A stretch of DNA of 64,000 nt, taken from positions 27,594-91,593 of the forward strand of contig NZ_FNCV01000010.1 of the NCBI RefSeq assembly GCF_900100455.1. The letters are read 5' to 3'. The DNA comes from Roseospirillum parvum. Its GTDB lineage: Bacteria > Pseudomonadota > Alphaproteobacteria > Rhodospirillales > Rhodospirillaceae. The notes beneath the pieces are model-generated. The model saw only the letters and a program-made list of their open reading frames with translations, searched no databases and was not told the DNA's origin. The translations under genes were made by a program, and so were the position numbers. Shown in pieces: positions 23,403 through 32,713 of this stretch. Numbering within the stretch: position 1 is the stretch's first letter; the number at the start of each line of letters is the position of its first letter.

Positions 23403-24812
23403 ATGTCCGATGCCAGCAAAGTCATGGAAATGATCAAGGAAAACGACGTCCAGTACGTCGATTTCCGTTTTACCGATCCGAAGGGCAAGTGGCAGCACAC
23501 CGCCCAGCACGTGGACAGCGTTGACGAGGACATGCTGACCGACGGCATCATGTTCGACGGCAGCTCGATCGCCGGCTGGAAGGACATCAACGAGTCCGAC
23601 ATGATCCTCATGCCGGACCTGTCGACCGCCGTGATGGACCCGTTCGCCGCCCAGCCGCAGCTGATCCTGTTCTGCGACATCGTGGAGCCGGCCACCGGCC
23701 AGCCCTACGAGCGCGACCCCCGCTCGATCGCCAAGAAGGCGCTGACCTACATGGCCTCGGCCGGCATCGGCGACACCGCCTACTTCGGTCCGGAAGCCGA
23801 GTTCTTCGTCTTCGACGATGTGCGCTGGAACATCTCGATGAACAAGGTCGGCTACGAGATCGACAGCGAGGAAGGCCCCTACGTCACCGGCAAGGCCTTC
23901 CAGGAAGGCAACATGGGTCACCGTCCGCGTCCCAAGGGTGGCTACTTCCCGGTGCCCCCGGTCGACGCCGGCATGGACATGCGCGCCGAGATGGTCAGCA
24001 CCATGAAGGAAATGGGCCTGCCCATGGAGAAGCACCACCACGAGGTGGCGCCCTCGCAGCATGAGCTGGGCTTCAAGTTCCTGACCCTGATCGAAGCCGC
24101 CGACGCCATGCAGATCTACAAGTACTGCACGCACATGGTGGCCCACGCCTACGGCAAGACCGCCACCTTCATGCCCAAGCCGGTGGCCGGCGACAACGGG
24201 TCGGGCATGCACACCCACCAGTCGATCTGGAAGGACGGCCAGCCGCTGTTCGCCGGCTCGGGCTATGCCGACCTGTCGGAGACGGCGCTCTACTACATTG
24301 GCGGCATCATCAAGCACGCCAAGGCCCTGAACGCCTTCACCAACCCCTCGACCAACTCCTACAAGCGCCTGATCCCGGGCTTCGAGGCGCCGGTGCTGCT
24401 GGCCTACTCGGCGCGCAACCGCTCCGCCTCGTGCCGTATCCCCTACGGCTCCAGCCCCAAGGCCAAGCGGGTCGAGGTGCGCTTCCCCGACCCCACCGCC
24501 AACCCCTACTTGGCCTTCAGCGCCATGATGATGGCGGGCCTCGACGGCATCCAGAACAAGATCCATCCGGGCGACCCGATGGACAAGAACCTCTACGACC
24601 TGCCGCCGGAAGAGCTGGCCGACGTGCCGACCGTCTGCGGCAGCCTGCGCGAGGCCCTGGAAGCCCTGGACGCCGACCGCGAGTTCCTGAAGAAGGGCGA
24701 CGTCTTCACCGACGACGCCATCGACGCCTACATGGACCTGAAGTGGGACGAGGTCTACAACTTCGAACACGCCGTCCACCCGATCGAGTACGAGATGTAC
24801 TACTCGGTTTGA
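23403..24812 (+). CDS. glnA: Glutamine synthetase type I
   Basis: Dodecameric GSI of 469 aa that makes glutamine from glutamate, ammonia and ATP, the entry of ammonium in this organism. [18 protein letters not shown], the ATP region [18 protein letters not shown] and NRSASCRIP are intact. The adenylylation tyrosine is near residue 398 in [10 protein letters not shown], so GlnE control is expected. The ATG at 23403 gives [15 protein letters not shown]. Codon use is strongly biased towards C-ending codons, consistent with high expression. The end of the gene lies only 45 bp from the left boundary of the proposed island, which may have displaced its original terminator. Confidence 0.98.
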
Positions 24813-24856: not shown

Positions 24857-24874
24857 CTGTGTAGCAGGCGTGTG
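24857..24874. repeat. Left direct repeat (candidate attL) of the island
   Basis: CTGTGTAGCAGGCGTGTG matches 31616-31633 at 17 of 18 positions (G against T at position 12). It is flanked by an imperfect inverted repeat (CCACACCCGGCTA on the left, TAGCAGGCGTGTGG on the right), as expected of a tyrosine-recombinase core site. It lies 45 bp after glnA. Confidence 0.6.
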
Positions 24875-24899
24875 GAGCGGTCAAGGGACCGACCTCGGA

Positions 24900-24930
24900 G
24901 GCCCCCGTCAGGCGACTGGCGGGGGTTTCC
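24900..24930 (+). terminator. Hairpin terminator after glnA / at island left end
   Basis: GCCCCCGTCA - short loop - TGGCGGGGG followed by TTT at 24900-24930, reading on the + strand. If the direct repeat at 24857 is attL, this hairpin belongs to the island and now ends glnA transcription. A second small hairpin (GGTGTGCA/TGCACC) follows at about 24953-24970 next to the end of the ParB-like gene. Confidence 0.6.
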
Positions 24931-24991
24931 ATTTGGGCCGCGCCCGCCTCAAGGGTGTGCAAAATGCACCCCGTAAGGATTACACAGGGGA

Positions 24992-25846
24992 TCAGAAGTC
25001 GTCGTTCTCGCCGTCCACCTCCTCGGGGACAAGCAAGCCGAGTTCATGGACTAGGTCCGGCAGGTTCCGACCGAAGTAGATGGCGAAGGTTCGGGCGGCC
25101 AGCGTGGGGTTGGTGGCGAGCTTGGTGCTGAACTCCCTTGAGAGCCGGTCGGCATAGTCCGCCGCCTGGACCTCCAGACGCGCCTCGCGATCCTCGTCGC
25201 TCAACTCCTCCCGCTTGAGGCCCTTGTGGGCATTCATCGCCTCGAACCAGAACTTGAAGCCGAACGCCTCCTCGCCCAGTTCCCTCTTCACCCGGCGCAT
25301 GATGGCAATGCTGCCGTCCGAGGCGCCCGACGCCTTGGCGATCTGCTTCTTGGAATGCTTGCCGAGAAGCACCAGACGCCACGCGTAGTTCTGCCGCTCC
25401 TGGGTGCTCATCGGCAGTTTGGCCTTGCTGTTGGCCCGTCCAGCCGCCAGCACCGCCTGTTCCAGGGTGCCGTTGAAGTACTCCACCGGAATGTCGTTGG
25501 TGACACCGGACGACTCGTAGGCCGCCACGCGATGATGACCATCAAGCAGGATCACCGAACGCCCAACCTGCGCCACCAGAAGCGGATCGAGACGCCCCCC
25601 GGCCTTGATGGCCCGCTGAAGCTCGCTGATGTGCCGTTCGTCCATCCCTCGGGGCTGGAACAGATCGGGGTGAAGCTCGATTTCCGACAAGGGCAGACGA
25701 CCCGGCCGGACCTCGGGTTCTGGCTCCCGCTCGGCCCTGGCCTTCAACTTCTCCAGCAAGTCCAGCGGCTCAAAAGCCAACCATTCTTCTTCCTCGTTCG
25801 CCACGGCCTCGGGAATGCCGACCGTTTTTGCTTCCTTCCCGGTCAC
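24992..25846 (-). CDS. ParB-like nuclease-domain protein
   Basis: Protein of 284 aa with a ParB/Srx-type N-terminal domain at about residues 45-140. PLSEIELHPDLFQPRGMDERHISELQRAIKAGGRLDPLLV leads to the motif LLDGHHRVAAYE, equivalent to the nucleotide-binding box of ParB-like domains. A central helical region (KHSKKQIAKASGASDGSIAIMRRVKREL) looks like a helix-turn-helix. No ParA is nearby, so a plasmid-partition role is doubtful. It could be a DNA-binding regulator or a CTP/ATP-using enzyme of the element. It overlaps the upstream zinc-finger-like gene by 4 bp (ATGA), so the two are translated together. Part of the island's minus-strand module. Confidence 0.8.
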   Translation of the reverse strand: MTGKEAKTVGIPEAVANEEEEWLAFEPLDLLEKLKARAEREPEPEVRPGRLPLSEIELHPDLFQPRGMDERHISELQRAIKAGGRLDPLLVAQVGRSVILLDGHHRVAAYESSGVTNDIPVEYFNGTLEQAVLAAGRANSKAKLPMSTQERQNYAWRLVLLGKHSKKQIAKASGASDGSIAIMRRVKRELGEEAFGFKFWFEAMNAHKGLKREELSDEDREARLEVQAADYADRLSREFSTKLATNPTLAARTFAIYFGRNLPDLVHELGLLVPEEVDGENDDF

Positions 25847-26505
25847 GTCAGGTTCCTCACAGCTTCGCCCAATTGATGAACTTCATCCCGGCGCTTCCTC
25901 GCGTCCTCTTCCTCCCGCCGGGCCAGCATCAGCCCAGGCAAGCCGAACGCCTCGTTCAGCATGGCCGCCATGGTCAGCGTGGTGGTGGCCGGAAGATCGC
26001 GGTAGACCCGCTTCACCCGACCTGACCCGTGATCGAACCAACTCCCCGCGTTGACGTCCGTCAGGCCACGAAGACGCCGGCTCAGTTGGTGCCGAAAGGC
26101 GTCATCGGACTGGAAGCGCCGGTGGTCATGCTCCTGCATCATGTACAGGGCCAGGGCGGTTTCGATCACCGTCCACGGCTCGACATGATCGGCGATCCTG
26201 ACCACCTCGACACAGGCCTGGCGCTGGTGACGGTTCATGGCCCGACCGTCCAGGGCCTGGGCGACCACGCCCCGGCAGTGCTCGACCAGCGCGGCCCAGC
26301 GGGCCTCGATCTGGCCCCACAGGGGGCTGTCCGGGTTGCGGGACTTCCGTTGTCGAACCAGGGCCACGAAGGGGACCAGTTCAGCCTTGGTGACGCCGGT
26401 TTGCTGGGGGTGGCCGTGGCGGCGCTGGCGGCTCTTGTGGGTGCTGCACAGGCTGCCCCAGCGGGTGACCGGAGCCGTGCAGCCAGGAACGCGACAGGTG
26501 CTCAT
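25843..26505 (-). CDS. Hypothetical protein with N-terminal Cys/His zinc-finger-like motif
   Basis: Protein of 220 aa that I do not recognise. The N-terminus MSTCRVPGCTAPVTRWGSLC-STH holds C4, C9, C20 and H23, spaced like a small zinc knuckle. The rest is helical and charged, with no membrane segment and no catalytic motif that I can name (VEPWTVIETALALYMMQEHDHRRF in the middle, RREEEDARKRRDEVHQL near the end). The ATG at 26505 is chosen because the motif begins immediately; the frame to 26817 overlaps the recombinase gene. It is between the serine recombinase and the ParB-like gene and is 4-bp coupled to the latter, so the pair probably work together. Confidence 0.7.
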   Translation of the reverse strand: MSTCRVPGCTAPVTRWGSLCSTHKSRQRRHGHPQQTGVTKAELVPFVALVRQRKSRNPDSPLWGQIEARWAALVEHCRGVVAQALDGRAMNRHQRQACVEVVRIADHVEPWTVIETALALYMMQEHDHRRFQSDDAFRHQLSRRLRGLTDVNAGSWFDHGSGRVKRVYRDLPATTTLTMAAMLNEAFGLPGLMLARREEEDARKRRDEVHQLGEAVRNLT

Positions 26506-26581
26506 TGGGATCGCTCTGCGAAGAATCCGCACCCGCCCCCGGAGAGACAGGCACGAAGGAAATTTCCAGGGGAGAGGGTAA

Positions 26582-27148
26582 TCAGGCGCTGGAGCCGGGA
26601 TTGTCAAGAATGCGGTAGACCGAGGCCCGCCCGATCTCCAGCCGCCGGGCGATCTCGGTGGCTCCCACGCCTTCGGCCTTGAGCCGGCGAACCTCCGTCT
26701 CCTTGGCCCGGGCCGTGGCCTTGCGGCCCTTGTACTTGCCCTCGCGGCGGGCCTTCTCGATGCCCTCGCGCTGGCGCTCCAGCATGATCTCGCGTTCAAA
26801 CTCCGCGATGCCGCCAAGCACGGTCAGCATCAGCTTGCCGGTGGAGGTGGCCGTATCGATGCCCATGTCCAGGATGCGAAGGCTGGCCCCCTTGGCCTGG
26901 ATCGCCTCCGTGATCTCCAGCAGATGCTTCACCGAGCGGGCCAACCGGTCCAGCTTGGTCACCACCAGGGTGTCACCCTCGCGGATGAACTCCAGAGCCT
27001 GGGCCAACTGCTCCCGGTTGGGGACATCCACCGAGGAGACCTGTTCGCTGAACAGCTTATCGCACCCCGCCGCGCGAAGATCGCGGGCCTGGGCTTCGAT
27101 GCTGGCCTTCTGGTCCAGGGTTGAGGTGCGGGCGTAACCGACGAGCAT
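26582..27148 (-). CDS. Serine recombinase (resolvase/invertase family)
   Basis: Small serine recombinase of 188 aa. The catalytic domain begins MLVGYARTSTLDQ with nucleophile S9, then LVVTKLDRLARSVKHL with the conserved DRL-R residues, and STGKLMLTVLGGIAEFEREIMLERQREGI of the long helix. The C-terminal ~45 residues form a Hin-type helix-turn-helix (GVGATEIARRLEIGRASVYRIL). It would cut and rejoin DNA at short inverted or direct sites, as a resolvase or DNA invertase. The ATG at 27148 is chosen for the family N-terminus. It is the first gene of the island's minus-strand module, and 331 bp of non-coding DNA separates it from vsr. Confidence 0.92.
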   Translation of the reverse strand: MLVGYARTSTLDQKASIEAQARDLRAAGCDKLFSEQVSSVDVPNREQLAQALEFIREGDTLVVTKLDRLARSVKHLLEITEAIQAKGASLRILDMGIDTATSTGKLMLTVLGGIAEFEREIMLERQREGIEKARREGKYKGRKATARAKETEVRRLKAEGVGATEIARRLEIGRASVYRILDNPGSSA

Positions 27149-27479
27149 GGGGGCCTCCGGGGCAAGGTGTCTCACAACGTCTTAAACGCATGAGTCCACC
27201 CGCCCCGAAAGTCAAGAGGCAATGTGTATGAGACACCCTGGACCGCATCCCGAGACGACTCGCTGGGGCAAGGCTCATTGAGACGGCGGCCTCAAGAGGC
27301 GAGCGAGCGAGCGGGAGTTGGAAGTCACCATCCAGCACCAACGCCAACCGACCCACCCCACCGGGGGAAATCGGCGCTTGCCCATGTAGGTTTAGGCGCT
27401 CAGATTTTCGCGCTGAAACACCCGCACCCACTCGCCGACCTGGCTCACCGCGAGAGTCATCCCGGAAGCCAAGGGGCCA
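27149..27479. other. 331-bp divergent gap between recombinase and vsr
   Basis: No gene is seen. It contains a short GCGA run near 27300 and must hold promoters for the serine recombinase (-) and for vsr (+). AAGGGG a few nt before 27480 is the vsr ribosome-binding site. I found no clear recombination site for the serine recombinase. Confidence 0.45.
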
Positions 27480-27935
27480 ATGCCTGAATCGATGGCTGAT
27501 ACTCTGACCCCTTCTCAACGATCAGAACGAATGAGCCGCGTTCGCGCTCGCGACACCCGACCCGAGTTGGCCGTCCGGCGCGTCCTCCATCGCTCGGGCT
27601 ATCGATACCGCCTTCAGGGCAAGGATTTACCGGGCCGGCCAGATATAGTATTCCGATGCAGGAAGAAGGCCATATTTGTCCATGGCTGCTTTTGGCACAG
27701 ACACCCCGGATGCGCCTTGGCGCGAATGCCGAAATCTCGAGTAGAGTTCTGGGTGACGAAGCTGGAAGGCAACCGTGATCGCGACCTCCGCAATCAAGCG
27801 GCGCTTATCGCGATGGGCTGGGAGTTCCTGGTTATTTGGGAATGCGAGATAGGGAACACAGGAGCGATGGAGGAGAAACTTCGGCAGTTCCTGGGATCAA
27901 CGAGGGAGGTTGGGGGACGTGTTCAAGTCGGTTGA
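27480..27935 (+). CDS. vsr: Very short patch repair endonuclease
   Basis: Vsr nicks DNA at T:G mismatches made by deamination of 5-methylcytosine at the partner methylase's site, starting very-short-patch repair. It is 151 aa, near the usual length. RMSRVRARDTRPELAVRRVLH, the catalytic aspartate D55 in GRPDIVF, and the zinc/active-site segment FVHGCFWHRHPGC (residues 66-78) are all intact. It overlaps the start of the cytosine methyltransferase gene by 17 bp, the normal pairing. The start could also be ATG at 27492. GC content and codon use are lower than in the chromosomal flanks, in line with horizontal transfer. Confidence 0.95.
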   Translation: MPESMADTLTPSQRSERMSRVRARDTRPELAVRRVLHRSGYRYRLQGKDLPGRPDIVFRCRKKAIFVHGCFWHRHPGCALARMPKSRVEFWVTKLEGNRDRDLRNQAALIAMGWEFLVIWECEIGNTGAMEEKLRQFLGSTREVGGRVQVG

Positions 27936-29124
27936 ACTCTTCGCGGGAGCTGGTGGCTTGGGCATGGGAGTCGGCCTCGCCGGCTTCACCCCAATGGCCG
28001 TTGTGGAGCGGGACCGCTGGGCCGCCGACACGGTGCGGGAGAACGCCGCCCGTGATTTCCCGCTCGTGAAGGACTGGCCGCTATTCGAGGGCGATGTTCG
28101 ACATTTCGATTTCGACACCCTCGAAGACAAGATCGACTTGGTTTCGGGAGGCCCACCGTGCCAACCGTTTTCCCTCGGAGGCAAACACCGCGCGAATGCC
28201 GACGACCGAGACATGTTCCCCGTTACCGTGGACGTGGTTCGTCGCCTTCGGCCGAAAGCCTTCATTCTTGAGAATGTCCGTGGCCTGACCCGGTCGGCTT
28301 TTGCCAACTACTTTCAGTACATCCTCCTGCAACTCAGCTTCCCGGAGATCGTGCGCCGCCCACGCGACAACGCCGAAAACCATCTGAAGCGGCTGGAGGA
28401 AGCCAAGACCTCAGGCCGGCGCGACGGGCTGACCTACGAGGTTGTTCACCGTGTCATCAACGCAGCCGATTATGGCATCCCTCAAAAGCGGGAGCGCGTA
28501 TTCATCGTTGGCTTCCGTCAAGACCTTGAGGTCAAATGGTCATTCCCCACCGAGACTCACAGTCTAGATGCGCTCCTTGAGGACCAGTGGGTGACCGGCG
28601 ACTACTGGGATCGGCACCGTATCGCGTCTCGCCACCGCTCACCCACGCCACTCCGCCTGCGACGCAGAATCGAGGCCATCAGGACCAGCAACGACCGCCC
28701 AACTCGCTCAAGCAAGCCCTGGCGAACCGTTCGTGACGCCCTGCTCGATATGCCCGACCCGCGCGAGACATCGGAGTTGTTCCACGACCATAGATACCAG
28801 CCAGGGGCCAGAGCCTATCCCGGCCATACAGGAAGTCCTCTCGACTTGCCCTCCAAAGCCCTCAAGGCCGGTGTCCATGGTGTCCCCGGCGGGGAAAACA
28901 TGATGGTGCTGGACGATGGGAGCGTCAGGTACTTCAGCGTCCGAGAAGCCGCTCGTTTGCAGACGTTTCCCGATGGCTACAAGTTCCATGGCGCGTGGTC
29001 CGAAACCATGCGGCAACTCGGCAACGCCGTACCGGTCCGCTTGGCACAGACCGTGGCGAGCAGTGTTGCGGAACAACTTGCCCTCCGCTTGGAACAAGAG
29101 CTCAAACAAGACAGAAGCGCATAG
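27919..29124 (+). CDS. DNA (cytosine-5) methyltransferase of a type II R-M system
   Basis: C5-cytosine methylase, 401 aa. Motif I ELFAGAGGLGMG, motif IV GGPPCQPFSLGG with catalytic C81, motif VI LENVRG, motif VIII PQKRERVFIVGF and motif X RQLGNAVPV are in the normal order. The start is taken as GTG at 27919, 9 nt after GGGAGG; TTG at 27910 is too close to that site. It overlaps vsr and is 8 bp from the endonuclease gene. Because the next gene resembles Eco29kI, the expected target is CCGCGG, by analogy with Eco29kI, Cfr42I and NgoMIII; the sequence does not prove that. No internal break is seen, so the methylase is likely active. Confidence 0.94.
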   Translation: MFKSVELFAGAGGLGMGVGLAGFTPMAVVERDRWAADTVRENAARDFPLVKDWPLFEGDVRHFDFDTLEDKIDLVSGGPPCQPFSLGGKHRANADDRDMFPVTVDVVRRLRPKAFILENVRGLTRSAFANYFQYILLQLSFPEIVRRPRDNAENHLKRLEEAKTSGRRDGLTYEVVHRVINAADYGIPQKRERVFIVGFRQDLEVKWSFPTETHSLDALLEDQWVTGDYWDRHRIASRHRSPTPLRLRRRIEAIRTSNDRPTRSSKPWRTVRDALLDMPDPRETSELFHDHRYQPGARAYPGHTGSPLDLPSKALKAGVHGVPGGENMMVLDDGSVRYFSVREAARLQTFPDGYKFHGAWSETMRQLGNAVPVRLAQTVASSVAEQLALRLEQELKQDRSA

Positions 29125-29132
29125 TATCGGCC

Positions 29133-29751
29133 ATGAGCTCGACCGAACCATACAACCCCCTTGCAAAACGCAACCTCGGCAAGAGCGTGGCGGATGCGCT
29201 TCTACAAAGCGAACCCGATCCGCTCGGCACTCTGACGAACTTCGATGGCGCCGGCATCTATGCCCTCTACTACACTGGGGCATTCCCGATCTACGCACCC
29301 ATCGCCAATCGAAACCGGAAGGGAAAATTTGAACTTCCGATCTACGTTGGCAAGGCAGTTCCGAAGGGCGCCAGAAAAGGAGATATCGGCCTTGGACTCG
29401 ACCCTGGCACGGCCCTGTTTACCCGCCTCGTCAAAGACCACGCCAAGAGCATTAAGCAAGCTGAAAACCTCGACATCGAAGACTTTTTTTTGCCGCTTCC
29501 TCGTAGTGGACGACATTTGGATTCCGCTTGGTGAAAGCCTGCTCATCTCAAGATTCGTGCCACTCTGGAACAAGTGGGTGGATGGCTTTGGCAACCATGA
29601 TCCCGGGGGCGGGCGATATAACCAAGAACGCTCCCGCTGGGACGTGCTGCACCCAGGCCGCCCTTGGGCCACGAAATGCAAGGAGCGGAAGGAAGCCCTT
29701 GCTCAGATTGAGACCGACGTGGCCGCTCGCTTAAGGGACATGTACGACTGA
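29133..29751 (+). pseudogene. Eco29kI-like GIY-YIG restriction endonuclease, frameshifted at a T8 tract
   Basis: Two frames together encode an Eco29kI-type GIY-YIG endonuclease of about 205 residues. From ATG 29133 the first frame gives the N-terminus, including DGAGIYALYYTG, LPIYVGKAVP and the R-H motif RLVKDHAKSI, up to NLDIEDFF. At 29484-29491 there are eight T residues, after which the frame yields a short wrong tail and stops at 29534. In the +1 frame the expected continuation is intact: DDIWIPLGESLLISRFVPLWN, with the catalytic-type E and N, then GFGNHDPGGGRYNQERS up to the stop at 29751. One T fewer would restore the gene. It may be inactive, phase-variable, rescued by slippage, or a sequencing error. 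Confidence 0.88.
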
Positions 29752-30008
29752 TTGACGCCAAGACCACGGCGAGGACTTGTGGAGGCCCTGCTTCCGTGAG
29801 ACCCGCCCTCCATCACGGCCTCCCAACCCCACTAGGATTGCGCCCACGCCAACATCGCCGCGAGATGTTCAAGGGATAGCCTTTGGGAGTGATCGACCGT
29901 TGCCCCCTACGCCACAAAGCTGGCACACAAGCCCCATGCGAGGCGACAGAAAACTCTCTGACTTCCAACAGCTTATCTCCCGGCGAGCGCTAGTCTTCCC
30001 TCGGGCAC
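29752..30008. other. 257-bp gap between endonuclease gene and integrase
   Basis: Convergent 3' ends of the endonuclease (+) and integrase (-) genes. I see no gene and no strong terminator hairpin. Its base composition resembles the island cargo rather than the chromosome. Confidence 0.4.
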
Positions 30009-31604
30009 CTACCGCCCCATGAGGTGCGTCAGATCAACGCCGAAGTCCAGGTCCTTGAAACACTCCAGCCGCTTGGATGGGGTGAACAACTTGCCGCCGT
30101 AGGTGCCCGCCGTGATGCCGTTGATCTTGTGGCCGACGATCCGACCGATCCGGGCCGTGTCGACGCCGGCTTCCTCCAGGCGGGAGACGAAGGTGTGCCG
30201 GAAGCTGTGGAAGACCACGCCTTCCCGCTCAAGGCCAATCATGCGCAGATAGCCGGGGAACCAGACGGCGAAGCGGTGGCTGTGGCTGCCCTCGCTGTTG
30301 GGCTTCAACTCCGGCCACAGACGCTCATGCTTGATGGCCTTCACGTGCTCCAGGAAGCCGAGATCGATCAGACGGGGGTGGATCGGCACCAGCCGTTCGC
30401 CGGCCTTGGTCTTGGACTTGAGAATGTCAAAGCACCAGACCCCGTCCTCCATCCGCACATCCGCGACCCGCAGCTTGGCGATTTCCTCGACCCGCATCCC
30501 GGTGTGCAGGCTGATCAGCGGAAACCAGTACTTGTAGTCCTTGACCAGCACCGAACCAGGACGCTCTCGCCGATCAGCCCGCCAGTGACCGGTGTACAGG
30601 GGCGAATGAAACAGCCGCCGCAATTCGTCGGCCGAGAAGGCGTCGCGCTTGGGAGCGTCGGCGGGCGGCATCAGGCCCACGGTGGGATTGTCGATGGTGG
30701 CCTTGCCCTCCTGCTTCGCCCAGTTGAACAGGGCGGCGACCACCTTGAAATGGTGGCGGATGGTGTTGTTGGAGCGCTCCCCTTCCTCCAGCACCTCCCG
30801 CCAGCCCCGAATGTCGTCCCGGGTCACGGTGTCGATGGGCTTGCCGTCCAGGGTTTCGACGAACAGGCGCAGCTTGCCGATGGCGTTCCTGCGGGTGGTC
30901 GGCTGCCACTTGCCATCGCGGACCTGGGCCACCTCGTAGGCCTCCAGGACGTCGCCCAGCGGCAGGGACTTGGCTCGTTGATCCCCTGGCTCGGGCATCA
31001 TGGAGGAAACCGACGCCGATTGCCGGCGGAACAATGGGTCAATCGGCTCCAACGAGTAGTCGCCGACCCGCCGGGCCTTGGAGATGCGAAACAGTTCAAT
31101 GTTCGCTCTCAGAAGGGCCAAGCACAAACGCTTATATACGTCAGACCCCGGCTCCGCACTTCTGCCAGCTTCTCCCAGAAGACATTCCACATCCCGGGCG
31201 ACCTTGGAGAACTGGTTGCAGGCGATGGCCTCTCGGTAGTCGGCCTCCAGTTCGCTCAGAAGCTCAAGGTCCGCATCGACCGGGTCTTCGCCAGCGCGGG
31301 GCCACACATAGAGCGCTTTTCCCGACTGGGCAGAGAGGCGGAAATCCTCCTCATCCCGCAGCGCTTCAGCAAACCACTTGCGGGCGAGGTCATCGATCTG
31401 GTCGGGGGTCAGTTCAGGATGGCTCATCAGGTGATCGAACAGACGGTCGGCGGTGATGGACAGAAGCCGGGCGCGGCGCATCGCCTCTCCCCGGCTGGTG
31501 GTGTGCAGAGAGCGGACGATCTCCCGTCGGCCCCATCGGGTGCTCAAGGTATACGGCACCCGGCGGCGCCATGAGTAGACCGCACCTCGGCGTTGGACGT
31601 GCAT
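30009..31604 (-). CDS. Tyrosine site-specific integrase
   Basis: Phage-type tyrosine recombinase of 531 aa. The N-terminus MHVQRRGAVYSWRRRVPYTLS is the DUF6538-type start of large proteobacterial island integrases. The central core-binding SAM-like domain includes KWQPTTRRNAIGKLRLFVETLDG. The catalytic domain has R371 in HTGMRVEEIAKLR, HSFRHTFVSRL with R469, GHKINGIT, and the nucleophile Y502 in TAGTYGG. All key residues are present. The ATG at 31604 is preferred over the frame to 31784, which runs through the repeat. Its start lies 12 nt inside the right direct repeat, so the gene sits at the end of the island it presumably mobilises. Confidence 0.94.
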   Translation of the reverse strand: MHVQRRGAVYSWRRRVPYTLSTRWGRREIVRSLHTTSRGEAMRRARLLSITADRLFDHLMSHPELTPDQIDDLARKWFAEALRDEEDFRLSAQSGKALYVWPRAGEDPVDADLELLSELEADYREAIACNQFSKVARDVECLLGEAGRSAEPGSDVYKRLCLALLRANIELFRISKARRVGDYSLEPIDPLFRRQSASVSSMMPEPGDQRAKSLPLGDVLEAYEVAQVRDGKWQPTTRRNAIGKLRLFVETLDGKPIDTVTRDDIRGWREVLEEGERSNNTIRHHFKVVAALFNWAKQEGKATIDNPTVGLMPPADAPKRDAFSADELRRLFHSPLYTGHWRADRRERPGSVLVKDYKYWFPLISLHTGMRVEEIAKLRVADVRMEDGVWCFDILKSKTKAGERLVPIHPRLIDLGFLEHVKAIKHERLWPELKPNSEGSHSHRFAVWFPGYLRMIGLEREGVVFHSFRHTFVSRLEEAGVDTARIGRIVGHKINGITAGTYGGKLFTPSKRLECFKDLDFGVDLTHLMGR

Positions 31605-31615
31605 CGGTGTTGCCC

Positions 31616-31633
31616 CTGTGTAGCAGTCGTGTG
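31616..31633. repeat. Right direct repeat (candidate attR) of the island
   Basis: CTGTGTAGCAGTCGTGTG, 17 of 18 identical to 24857-24874, 12 nt upstream of the integrase start codon. Position and pairing fit an attachment site. The single mismatch means that the exact crossover must lie in the shared CTGTGTAGCAG part or in CGTGTG. Confidence 0.6.
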
Positions 31634-31767
31634 CGCAAGGGTGGGTCACGACTGGTTCGCAGTGGCGCGAAACGCTAGGTTTTCCGCGATTCTCCGACGC
31701 CCATGGGGGCCTGTGCCGAGATGTACTACAGCGTCTGATCCGACGCCCGTACATCCGACCCGAGACG

Positions 31768-31798
31768 AGAGGGGGGAGCCGCAAGGCTCCCCCTTTTT
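31768..31798 (+). terminator. Orphan rho-independent terminator right of the island
   Basis: GGGGGGAGCC-GCAA-GGCTCCCCC followed by TTTTT, a strong + strand terminator. No + strand gene lies directly upstream: the integrase is on the minus strand. If the island inserted after glnA, this is plausibly the original glnA terminator. Confidence 0.85.
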
Positions 31799-32095
31799 GT
31801 TATGGGGCGCTCCTTGGCGGGGGTGCCCTCATTTCCCCTTCCGCCTGCAAGCACAACACCGCAGCGAAGCAGGCGCCAGACCCCCCGCCAGAAAAAGAAA
31901 AGCAGAAAATTTTATGAAAACACAAACCCCGTCGATCAGCCAAGTCACTGGGAATTCATGCAAACCCCATAAGCGGGAAAAACAAGATTTCTATGCGGTT
32001 CGATATATGGCCCGCTCTATCCTTACGTGCTACCCGTAACCCGAGTTTGGCTTCAGTGGGCGCAACAAGGGCCTGTTTGACGCGGGGATGAAATT

Positions 32096-32713
32096 ATGCT
32101 CGACCTCATTACTGGTATTGCTGTTGGAATCGTCGCGACCGCCCTCAGCCTGGAGGTCAAGAAACAGAAGAATAAGCGTATCTTTAAAAGATACGACCTG
32201 TCAGACGCCGGCAACCAGCTTCGATTCATCGAGGAGGTCAAACTTTACCGCAAGAGACCGATCAACCGCGAATCATACGAGCACTTCAGGTACATCGAGC
32301 AGCACCTGAAAAACAGGCAAGAGGGGTTGCGGATACTCGCCGAGGTTGGGCTCGGCGCCTTCATCGGAACCTCCGACGCAGCATCGACGGAGAAGCAGAG
32401 AAAACGCGCCTTCAGCTCCTACAACAGCAAGCGCGTGGACTTTCTTGTCATCGATGCTTTCGGCAACCCGGCGGTCGCCATCGAGTATCACGGCAGCGGC
32501 CACCATTTGAGCCCCGATGCCGTGGCCCGGGACGCCGTCAAGAAACGCGCCCTGCAAAAAGCGGGGATCGAGTTGCTGGAGATTTATCCCAACGCCCACA
32601 AACCCGAGGTCCTGGCCAGACTCGACGCCATCCTGGCCCGCCACGCGGGCACCACAGGCCGGCTGGCGGCGCCTCATCGCCCCCACCTCCAAGCCGTGGC
32701 CGTCGGCGCCTGA
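32096..32713 (+). CDS. DUF2726 protein with N-terminal membrane segment
   Basis: Protein of 205 aa. Residues 1-20 (MLDLITGIAVGIVATALSLE) form one hydrophobic segment followed by the basic stretch KKQKNKRIFKR, so a single-pass inner-membrane anchor with a cytosolic body is likely. The C-terminal half (KQRKRAFSSYNSKRVDFLVIDAFGNPAVAIEYHG...LQKAGIELLEIYPN) is the DUF2726 region. Its D-(16)-E-Y-H pattern resembles a PD-(D/E)XK nuclease-like core, but the usual lysine is replaced by histidine. Function unknown. Just outside the right repeat and in AT-rich surroundings, it may be a separate acquisition. An in-frame rival start is not evident; ATG at 32096 has GGGGAT upstream. Confidence 0.75.
   Translation: MLDLITGIAVGIVATALSLEVKKQKNKRIFKRYDLSDAGNQLRFIEEVKLYRKRPINRESYEHFRYIEQHLKNRQEGLRILAEVGLGAFIGTSDAASTEKQRKRAFSSYNSKRVDFLVIDAFGNPAVAIEYHGSGHHLSPDAVARDAVKKRALQKAGIELLEIYPNAHKPEVLARLDAILARHAGTTGRLAAPHRPHLQAVAVGA

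What the first reader, a model, noticed from the sequence alone, without database searches (positions are those of the whole stretch)
24857..31633. A 6.76-kb integrative island inserted just behind glnA, with an R-M/Vsr set and two recombinases
An 18-nt repeat matching at 17 of 18 positions lies exactly at the two ends of a lower-GC segment whose right end carries a tyrosine integrase 12 nt from the repeat. The cargo is vsr, a cytosine methylase, a GIY-YIG endonuclease, a serine recombinase, and a ParB-like plus zinc-finger pair. No transfer or phage genes are seen, so it would depend on others for spread. The target, immediately downstream of glnA, is not a tRNA gene, which is unusual for this integrase class.
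Basis: partly seen in the sequence, partly recalled or inferred. Interest (0 to 1): 0.75.

Follow-up and report, generated by a model that had tools for sequence, protein, structure and literature searches.

The report
Mobile islands that swap glnA's tail
A 6.9-kb DNA island lies in the last codons of the glutamine synthetase gene glnA, where its integrase is predicted to have inserted it and where it has likely swapped the gene's own ending for a matching copy; all 16 close relatives of this integrase that were examined, this one included, lie beside a copy of that gene ending.

Summary
The 18-nt repeat (24857 and 31616) is present but lies inside the element. The outer repeat is CGAGATGTACTAC, at 24791-24803 inside the 3' end of glnA and at 31717-31729, where an orphan glnA tail (MYYSV-stop) is followed by a second terminator-like hairpin. 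Core to core the element is 6,926 bp. It likely inserted within the last codons of glnA and supplies its own synonymous ending and terminator.

Sixteen integrases of one clade (100/100 support) all have a glnA tail just outside the integrase start. In the 14 whose two ends could be read, the GlnA tail encoded at both ends is identical, in 9 with different nucleotides. Of 15 more distant homologues none lies at a glnA tail and 12 lie near tRNA genes. A second, distinct integrase lineage uses the same glnA site in four genomes.

Cargo here is an Eco29kI-type R-M set with Vsr, its endonuclease frame-shifted, plus a serine recombinase. The kind is known (compare e14 in icd); this target was not found in the papers searched.

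The parts
23403..24812 (+). glnA, type I glutamine synthetase; its last codons lie in the left attachment core
   Evidence: TIGR00653 675 bits, PF00120/PF03951
24791..24803 (+). left attachment core (attL) CGAGATGTACTAC, codons of the GlnA C terminus
   Evidence: 13-nt direct repeat of 31717-31729
24795..24812 (+). glnA tail (MYYSV-stop) now in use, inferred to be supplied by the element beyond the crossover
   Evidence: 4 nt differences to the outer tail, same amino acids; direction inferred from relatives
   Evidence: iteron places +63-65 and +76-78 shared with the left ends of relatives
24880..24885 (+). GTCAAG box of unknown role
   Evidence: GTCAA at +85 to +87 in 14 of 14 left ends
24897..24930 (+). 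terminator-like hairpin carried by the element behind the glnA tail
   Evidence: -31.5 kcal/mol, z -5.6, 0 of 200 shuffles as good; not listed by the pattern scan
24992..25846 (-). protein with weak ParB-like similarity
   Evidence: TIGR00180 27.3 bits, below cut-off
25843..26505 (-). Cys/His-bearing protein of an unnamed family; a homologue (36%) lies in the M. fulvum element
   Evidence: no Pfam hit
26582..27151 (-). small serine recombinase (resolvase type)
   Evidence: PF00239 2.9e-42, PF02796; homologue in the 8 other elements read in full
27480..27935 (+). Vsr mismatch endonuclease
   Evidence: TIGR00632 146 bits
27910..29124 (+). C5-cytosine DNA methyltransferase
   Evidence: PF00145 197.6 bits
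29133..29751 (+). Eco29kI-type restriction endonuclease gene, split over two frames at T8 29484-29491
   Evidence: PF09517 hits its first part in one frame and its last part in another; run length
30009..31604 (-). tyrosine integrase, DUF6538 N-terminal domain plus catalytic domain; R371, H466, R469, H492, Y502 present
   Evidence: PF20172, PF00589; conserved columns; model aligned to lambda and Tn1549 integrases
   Evidence: at least one iteron between -112 and -84 in 16 of 16 right ends by pattern, two or more in 14 of 16
31717..31729 (+). right attachment core (attR) CGAGATGTACTAC
31721..31738 (+). orphan glnA tail (MYYSV-stop), inferred to be the native one, displaced
   Evidence: a glnA tail at this place in 16 of 16 clade members
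31764..31801 (+). terminator-like hairpin, inferred native glnA terminator
   Evidence: -32.4 kcal/mol, z -7.6; not listed by the pattern scan

Best explanation
This is a 6,926-bp genomic island lying between two copies of the glnA 3' end, and it was likely inserted there by its own tyrosine integrase, whose crossover probably falls in or beside the codons for Met-Tyr near the GlnA C terminus. Shown by sequence: the duplicated core, the orphan tail outside the integrase, matching iterons at both ends, a glnA tail outside the integrase in 16 genomes and the two-ended layout in 14 of them. Inferred: the integrase binds the iterons with its N-terminal DUF6538 domain as arm sites and the core with its central domain. 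Inferred too: on integration the host keeps a complete GlnA because the element carries a synonymous tail and its own terminator, and the displaced native tail and terminator end up at the far end; excision would reverse this. The cargo (R-M/Vsr here, other defence systems in three relatives) is inferred to be what selection keeps. With no transfer or phage genes found, movement between cells probably depends on other elements.
Against: No excision, circle or integration was observed. No genome of the window's own genus besides G000 appears (one search lists only part of its genomes), so the window's own empty site was not seen. Left iterons were caught by the pattern in 9 of 14 left ends only; in the five other, nearly identical Azospirillum-group elements they were read by eye. 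The window's second iteron is degenerate at both ends, and a shared word as long as its 11-nt repeat came up in 14 of 2000 letter shuffles. In two clade members the integrase was not seen whole: G642 stops at a contig end and G730 is open only to position 356 of the query. In the two cut MAG contigs glnA itself was not seen, and type I glnA was not found in those MAGs. The isolated DUF6538 model found no convincing match in the PDB, so arm binding is unproven. The crossover place rests on identity blocks that mutation may have shortened.
Confidence: 0.93

Rival explanations
1. One reading: the element ends at the CTGTGTAGCAG repeats and the target is intergenic, behind glnA.
For: The repeat is near-perfect and unique in the window.
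Against: None of 32 other glnA loci (31 genomes) carries CTGTGTAGCAG within 400 nt of the tail. Related elements have another iteron at the same place but a glnA core. The sequence between the repeat and the core carries further shared features (degenerate iteron, GTCAA box) in relatives.
Confidence: 0.03
2. A decayed, immobile remnant: the island inserted at glnA once and is now fixed, kept for its methylase and Vsr.
For: The endonuclease gene is frame-shifted, the second iteron is degenerate, and the orphan tail differs from the working one at 4 of 18 positions.
Against: Integrase and serine recombinase frames are open and conserved residues present. The 4 differences may date from the element's former host rather than from decay.
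Confidence: 0.3
3. The orphan tail is not a displaced native tail but a chance or ancestral partial copy of glnA.
For: Only a 13-nt block is identical in the window.
Against: A glnA tail in the same place in 16 of 16 clade members; the block is 27 nt in N. itersonii and 47 nt in three Azospirillum-group elements; M. fulvum's orphan tail matches glnA of a genome of its genus.
Confidence: 0.02

Closest known systems
Prophage e14 in icd of E. coli K-12 (passages of PMC4759930)
   Same: Element inside a central metabolic gene, supplying a substitute end; excision across an 11-bp direct repeat restores the host version; both versions show the same activity in vitro; 10 of 12 differences are synonymous.
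   Different: Different gene, prophage rather than small island; in glnA only the last codons are exchanged, with the terminator, and iterons flank the core.
Islands at the 3' end of trmE (SGI1 kind) and at dusA (title and start of the abstract of PMC8409611, listing)
   Same: Islands at a conserved protein gene that depend on other elements for transfer.
   Different: Different target; the element seen here has no recognised mobilisation genes.
DUF6538 or similar tyrosine integrases at tRNA-Gln, tRNA-Ser and tRNA-Arg genes
   Same: Same catalytic family; the group joined to the glnA clade in the tree (91/93, below the starred level) holds four members at tRNA-Gln and one with no tRNA found.
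   Different: 26-40% identical over the aligned part; none of 14 in the tree at glnA.
Second integrase lineage at glnA in Azospirillum-group genomes (348 aa, L102:1743-2789)
   Same: Same glnA core, own tail supplied.
   Different: No DUF6538 hit; alignable to the window's integrase over only 60 residues at 30%.
Eco29kI-type restriction-modification
   Same: PF09517 endonuclease beside a C5 methylase.
   Different: Here with Vsr, and the endonuclease frame is broken.

Membership tests
Integrative genomic island of a tyrosine integrase | Open tyrosine integrase gene with the catalytic residues | tested here: met
   PF00589; R371, H466, R469, Y502 among conserved columns, H492 beside the conserved glycine; the role of these residues is recalled
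Integrative genomic island of a tyrosine integrase | Direct repeats from the target at both ends | tested here: met
   13 nt in the window, 9-47 nt in relatives
Integrative genomic island of a tyrosine integrase | Empty site in relatives | tested here: met
   same-genus cases G010 for N. itersonii and G603 for M. fulvum. The window's own genus: no second genome found. 32 other glnA loci show no second tail, but only up to 1.5 kb downstream was held
Integrative genomic island of a tyrosine integrase | Excised circle, integration activity | not testable with these tools
   no reads, no experiment
Lambda-type integrase with separate arm and core sites | Arm-type iterons flanking the core on both sides | tested here: met
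   as sequence only, binding not shown: right 16 of 16 by pattern; left 9 of 14 by pattern, 5 by eye
Lambda-type integrase with separate arm and core sites | N-terminal domain with an arm-binding fold | tested here: inconclusive
   beta-beta-alpha-beta-alpha model, pLDDT 91, no convincing PDB match
Integrative conjugative or mobilisable element | Relaxase or transfer genes | tested here: not met
   no such family among the eight island reading frames scanned; origins of transfer not searched
Phage satellite or prophage | Capsid, terminase or packaging genes | tested here: not met
   none among the eight reading frames; PHROGs not searched; integrase matches in 22 phage records are all under 60% identical and none covers 80%
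Eco29kI-type R-M system | Endonuclease and methylase both intact | tested here: not met
   endonuclease split over two frames

The most novel reading that the evidence does not exclude
The glnA 3' end is an integration hotspot of the tRNA kind: an integrase lineage moved from tRNA genes (nearest kin at tRNA-Gln) to glnA, a second lineage found the same codons independently, and every arrival or loss swaps GlnA's last codons together with its transcription terminator, so that islands act as heritable variants of glnA expression in Azospirillum and related alphaproteobacteria. DUF6538 would be a new type of arm-binding domain reading iterons spaced by about 13 nt.
Probability: 0.3. Interest if true: 0.8.

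Novelty: new variant of a known kind. Interest (0 to 1): 0.62.

Why it matters
It gives a clear case of integrases using a protein-coding end where most of their examined distant kin lie at tRNA genes, with the host gene kept whole by a synonymous tail and a spare terminator. Because the core, the iterons and the clade are all delimited, target choice and arm recognition can be tested directly. Several of the elements carry defence genes, and they sit at the nitrogen-assimilation gene of Azospirillum-group and related bacteria, so their presence or absence may be mistaken for changes in glnA itself.

Tried and rejected
A link between one residue of DUF6538 (SLH/SLR) and iteron type: rejected, because the Pleomorphomonas MAG has the SLR form with the TGTGTAGCA iteron. 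PDB search for the isolated DUF6538 model: nothing convincing. The pattern scan for terminators listed neither hairpin; folding showed both. Phage, plasmid and viral-contig searches gave no close integrase relative.

Literature: no paper naming glnA as an attachment site was seen in searches (0 papers; 94 papers, 20 listed; 86, 15 listed; 1; 0; 3; 0; 2); DUF6538 is in no held paper. These were listings; I opened passages only of PMC8270828, PMC12884075, PMC10872708, PMC12441131, PMC2765452 and PMC4759930. In the first, third, fourth and fifth the glnA or glutamine synthetase passages are unrelated; the second has no 'glutamine'. The library is open-access only and island databases could not be searched, so absence from print is not shown.

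Rows dropped or double: L045 is the same integrase as L036 and was left out of the tree; L052 (Polyangiaceae MAG, 28%) was checked only and is not in the tree. L017 (N. itersonii) was left out of the 32 loci, in which G010 counts twice (L016, L076). N. itersonii, M. fulvum, the Rhodospirillaceae MAG and the Methylocystaceae MAG each appear under several handles and were counted once. G603 (210 bits) and G396 (245 bits) passed the E 1e-60 limit but are not at glnA and fall outside the clade; 15 of the 16 clade members score 266 bits or more against the profile, the 16th, the Pleomorphomonas MAG, comes and has no such score. In one search G712's left end was first taken from glnA itself; searches use the element's own left core.
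Full report
WHAT IS THERE. The window holds glnA (23403-24812) and, behind it, genes for a weakly ParB-like protein, a Cys/His-bearing protein, a serine recombinase, Vsr, a C5 methylase, an Eco29kI-type endonuclease in two frames and a DUF6538 tyrosine integrase. The genome has one match to the whole region.

THE TRUE ENDS. The glnA 3' end is duplicated. CGAGATGTACTAC lies at 24791 inside glnA and at 31717, where GAG ATG TAC TAC AGC GTC TGA repeats the protein end EMYYSV-stop. Core to core the distance is 6,926 bp. The working tail (TCG GTT TGA) and the orphan one (AGC GTC TGA) differ at 4 of 18 positions but encode the same residues. Each is followed by a strong terminator-like hairpin, -31.5 and -32.4 kcal/mol.

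RELATIVES. In Novispirillum itersonii (integrase 60% identical) a 27-nt copy of the glnA tail flanks a 6,732-bp element. One scan of genome contigs and searches of whole genomes (73 of the family, 317 of the order, 385 drawn from the class, 82 inferred Azospirillaceae) gave 16 distinct integrases of this clade: window, N. itersonii, M. fulvum, three MAGs titled Rhodospirillaceae, Pleomorphomonas and Methylocystaceae (one search places the last, G644, in the window's order), G642, and nine Azospirillaceae. All 16 have a glnA tail outside the integrase start. In 13 of the 16 glnA lies at the other end on the same contig: in 12 directly, and in G712 behind a second element. G642 has its ends on two contigs, and two MAG contigs stop before glnA. 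Four elements measured core to core are 6.7 to 13.9 kb, G712's is 12.9 kb; glnA-to-integrase spans in the other eight Azospirillaceae run from 5.6 to 14.2 kb. G730's integrase is open only to query position 356 and G642's is cut by a contig end.

EMPTY SITES. G010, of the N. itersonii genus, has glnA followed by the terminator seen outside the N. itersonii attR. In M. fulvum the orphan tail ends TCGGTCTAATCCGAG, exactly as glnA ends in G603 of its genus, while the working tail differs. This supports the orphan tail being the native one. Of 32 other glnA loci (31 genomes) none has CTGTGTAGCAG within 400 nt of the tail; none shows a second tail, but only up to 1.5 kb downstream was held.

END ARCHITECTURE. 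Left of the element: tail, iterons at +63-65 and +76-78, GTCAA at +85-87 (14 of 14 left ends). Right: at least one iteron between -112 and -84 in 16 of 16, two or more in 14 of 16, spaced 12-13 nt. The iteron differs between subgroups (TGTGTAGCA, GGTGTAGCA, GGTGGACCA, GGTGGTACA, GGTGTACC) but is of one kind at both ends of an element. The pattern caught left iterons in 9 of 14; the five other, nearly identical Azospirillum-group elements have GGTGTACCG/GGTGTACCC or a one-letter variant there, read by eye. In letter shuffles a shared word as long as the observed one (window 11, N. itersonii 13, M. fulvum 13, Methylocystaceae MAG 12, G642 21 letters) came up in 14, 0, 1, 2 and 0 of 2000 trials. 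Of the 32 element-free rows, one (L018) had a motif of the two kinds sought, at +149 and +226, out of register. GTCAAG within 130 nt of the tail ATG was found in 1 of 28 element-free rows (L003, at +87; perhaps a scar). The iterons are most simply read as arm sites for the integrase.

TARGET CHANGE. In the tree the 16 glnA integrases form one side of a branch (100/100). The group joined to them (91/93, below the starred level, with long branches) holds four integrases at tRNA-Gln and one with no tRNA found. Of 15 distant homologues (14 in the tree, and L052) 12 have a tRNA gene within the fetched flanks and none a glnA tail. A move from a tRNA site to glnA is the simplest history; the root is a midpoint, so direction is inferred.

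SECOND LINEAGE. In G712 two elements lie in tandem behind glnA. The inner one has a 348-aa tyrosine integrase without DUF6538; it and its three close copies (96-100%), in four genomes of one genus, all end at a glnA tail, and the glnA side carries one and the same tail of its own. Four more distant hits of this lineage (31-32%) show no glnA tail, one lies by a tRNA-Thr gene.

CARGO. A serine recombinase is present in all 9 elements read in full, 30-78% identical to the window's in the other eight; five were not fetched whole and two contigs are cut. Defence genes were recognised in four: R-M with Vsr (window), type I R-M and GmrSD (M. fulvum), Lamassu LmuAB (Methylocystaceae MAG), type I R-M and PDC-S19 (G768). 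In the N. itersonii, G707, G724, G729 and outer G712 elements nothing was recognised, but only one to four cargo proteins of each were scanned, and those of N. itersonii and G707 not against PADLOC.

COMPARISON. The nearest published analogue seen is e14 in icd, where excision at an 11-bp repeat restores a version with 12 differences, 10 of them synonymous (passages). Islands that rebuild the gene they enter are known in general (PMC12884075 passage). No search showed glnA as such a target, within an open-access library and partial listings only.

Noticed in passing
29484-29491: Run of eight T at which the Eco29kI-type endonuclease gene changes frame: true mutation, slippage site or sequencing error.
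   Followed up: partly
32096-32713: Gene with DUF2726 and a weak REase_MTES_1575 match just outside attR, in a stretch of 53-55% GC; may be an older insertion.
   Followed up: no
L067 and L069, outside attR: Iteron-like GTGTAGCAG or GTGTAACAG plus GTCAAG and a hairpin-like repeat beyond attR, near the register of a left end: probable scars of earlier elements at the same glnA.
   Followed up: partly
L003 (G032), +87 after the ATG of the MYYSV tail: GTCAAG box at the element register in a glnA locus with no clade integrase found: possible scar.
   Followed up: partly
L101 and L102 (G712): Tandem of two elements with different integrase lineages behind one glnA, three tail copies.
   Followed up: yes
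L076 (G010): Start of a type I methylase-like gene close behind the uninterrupted glnA, beside a GTGTTGCAG that may be a decayed iteron.
   Followed up: no
24880-24885 and 13 other left ends: Conserved GTCAA box between the iterons and the terminator-like hairpin, role unknown.
   Followed up: partly
L067:10221-10658: RNase HI gene inside the Methylocystaceae MAG element next to attL.
   Followed up: no
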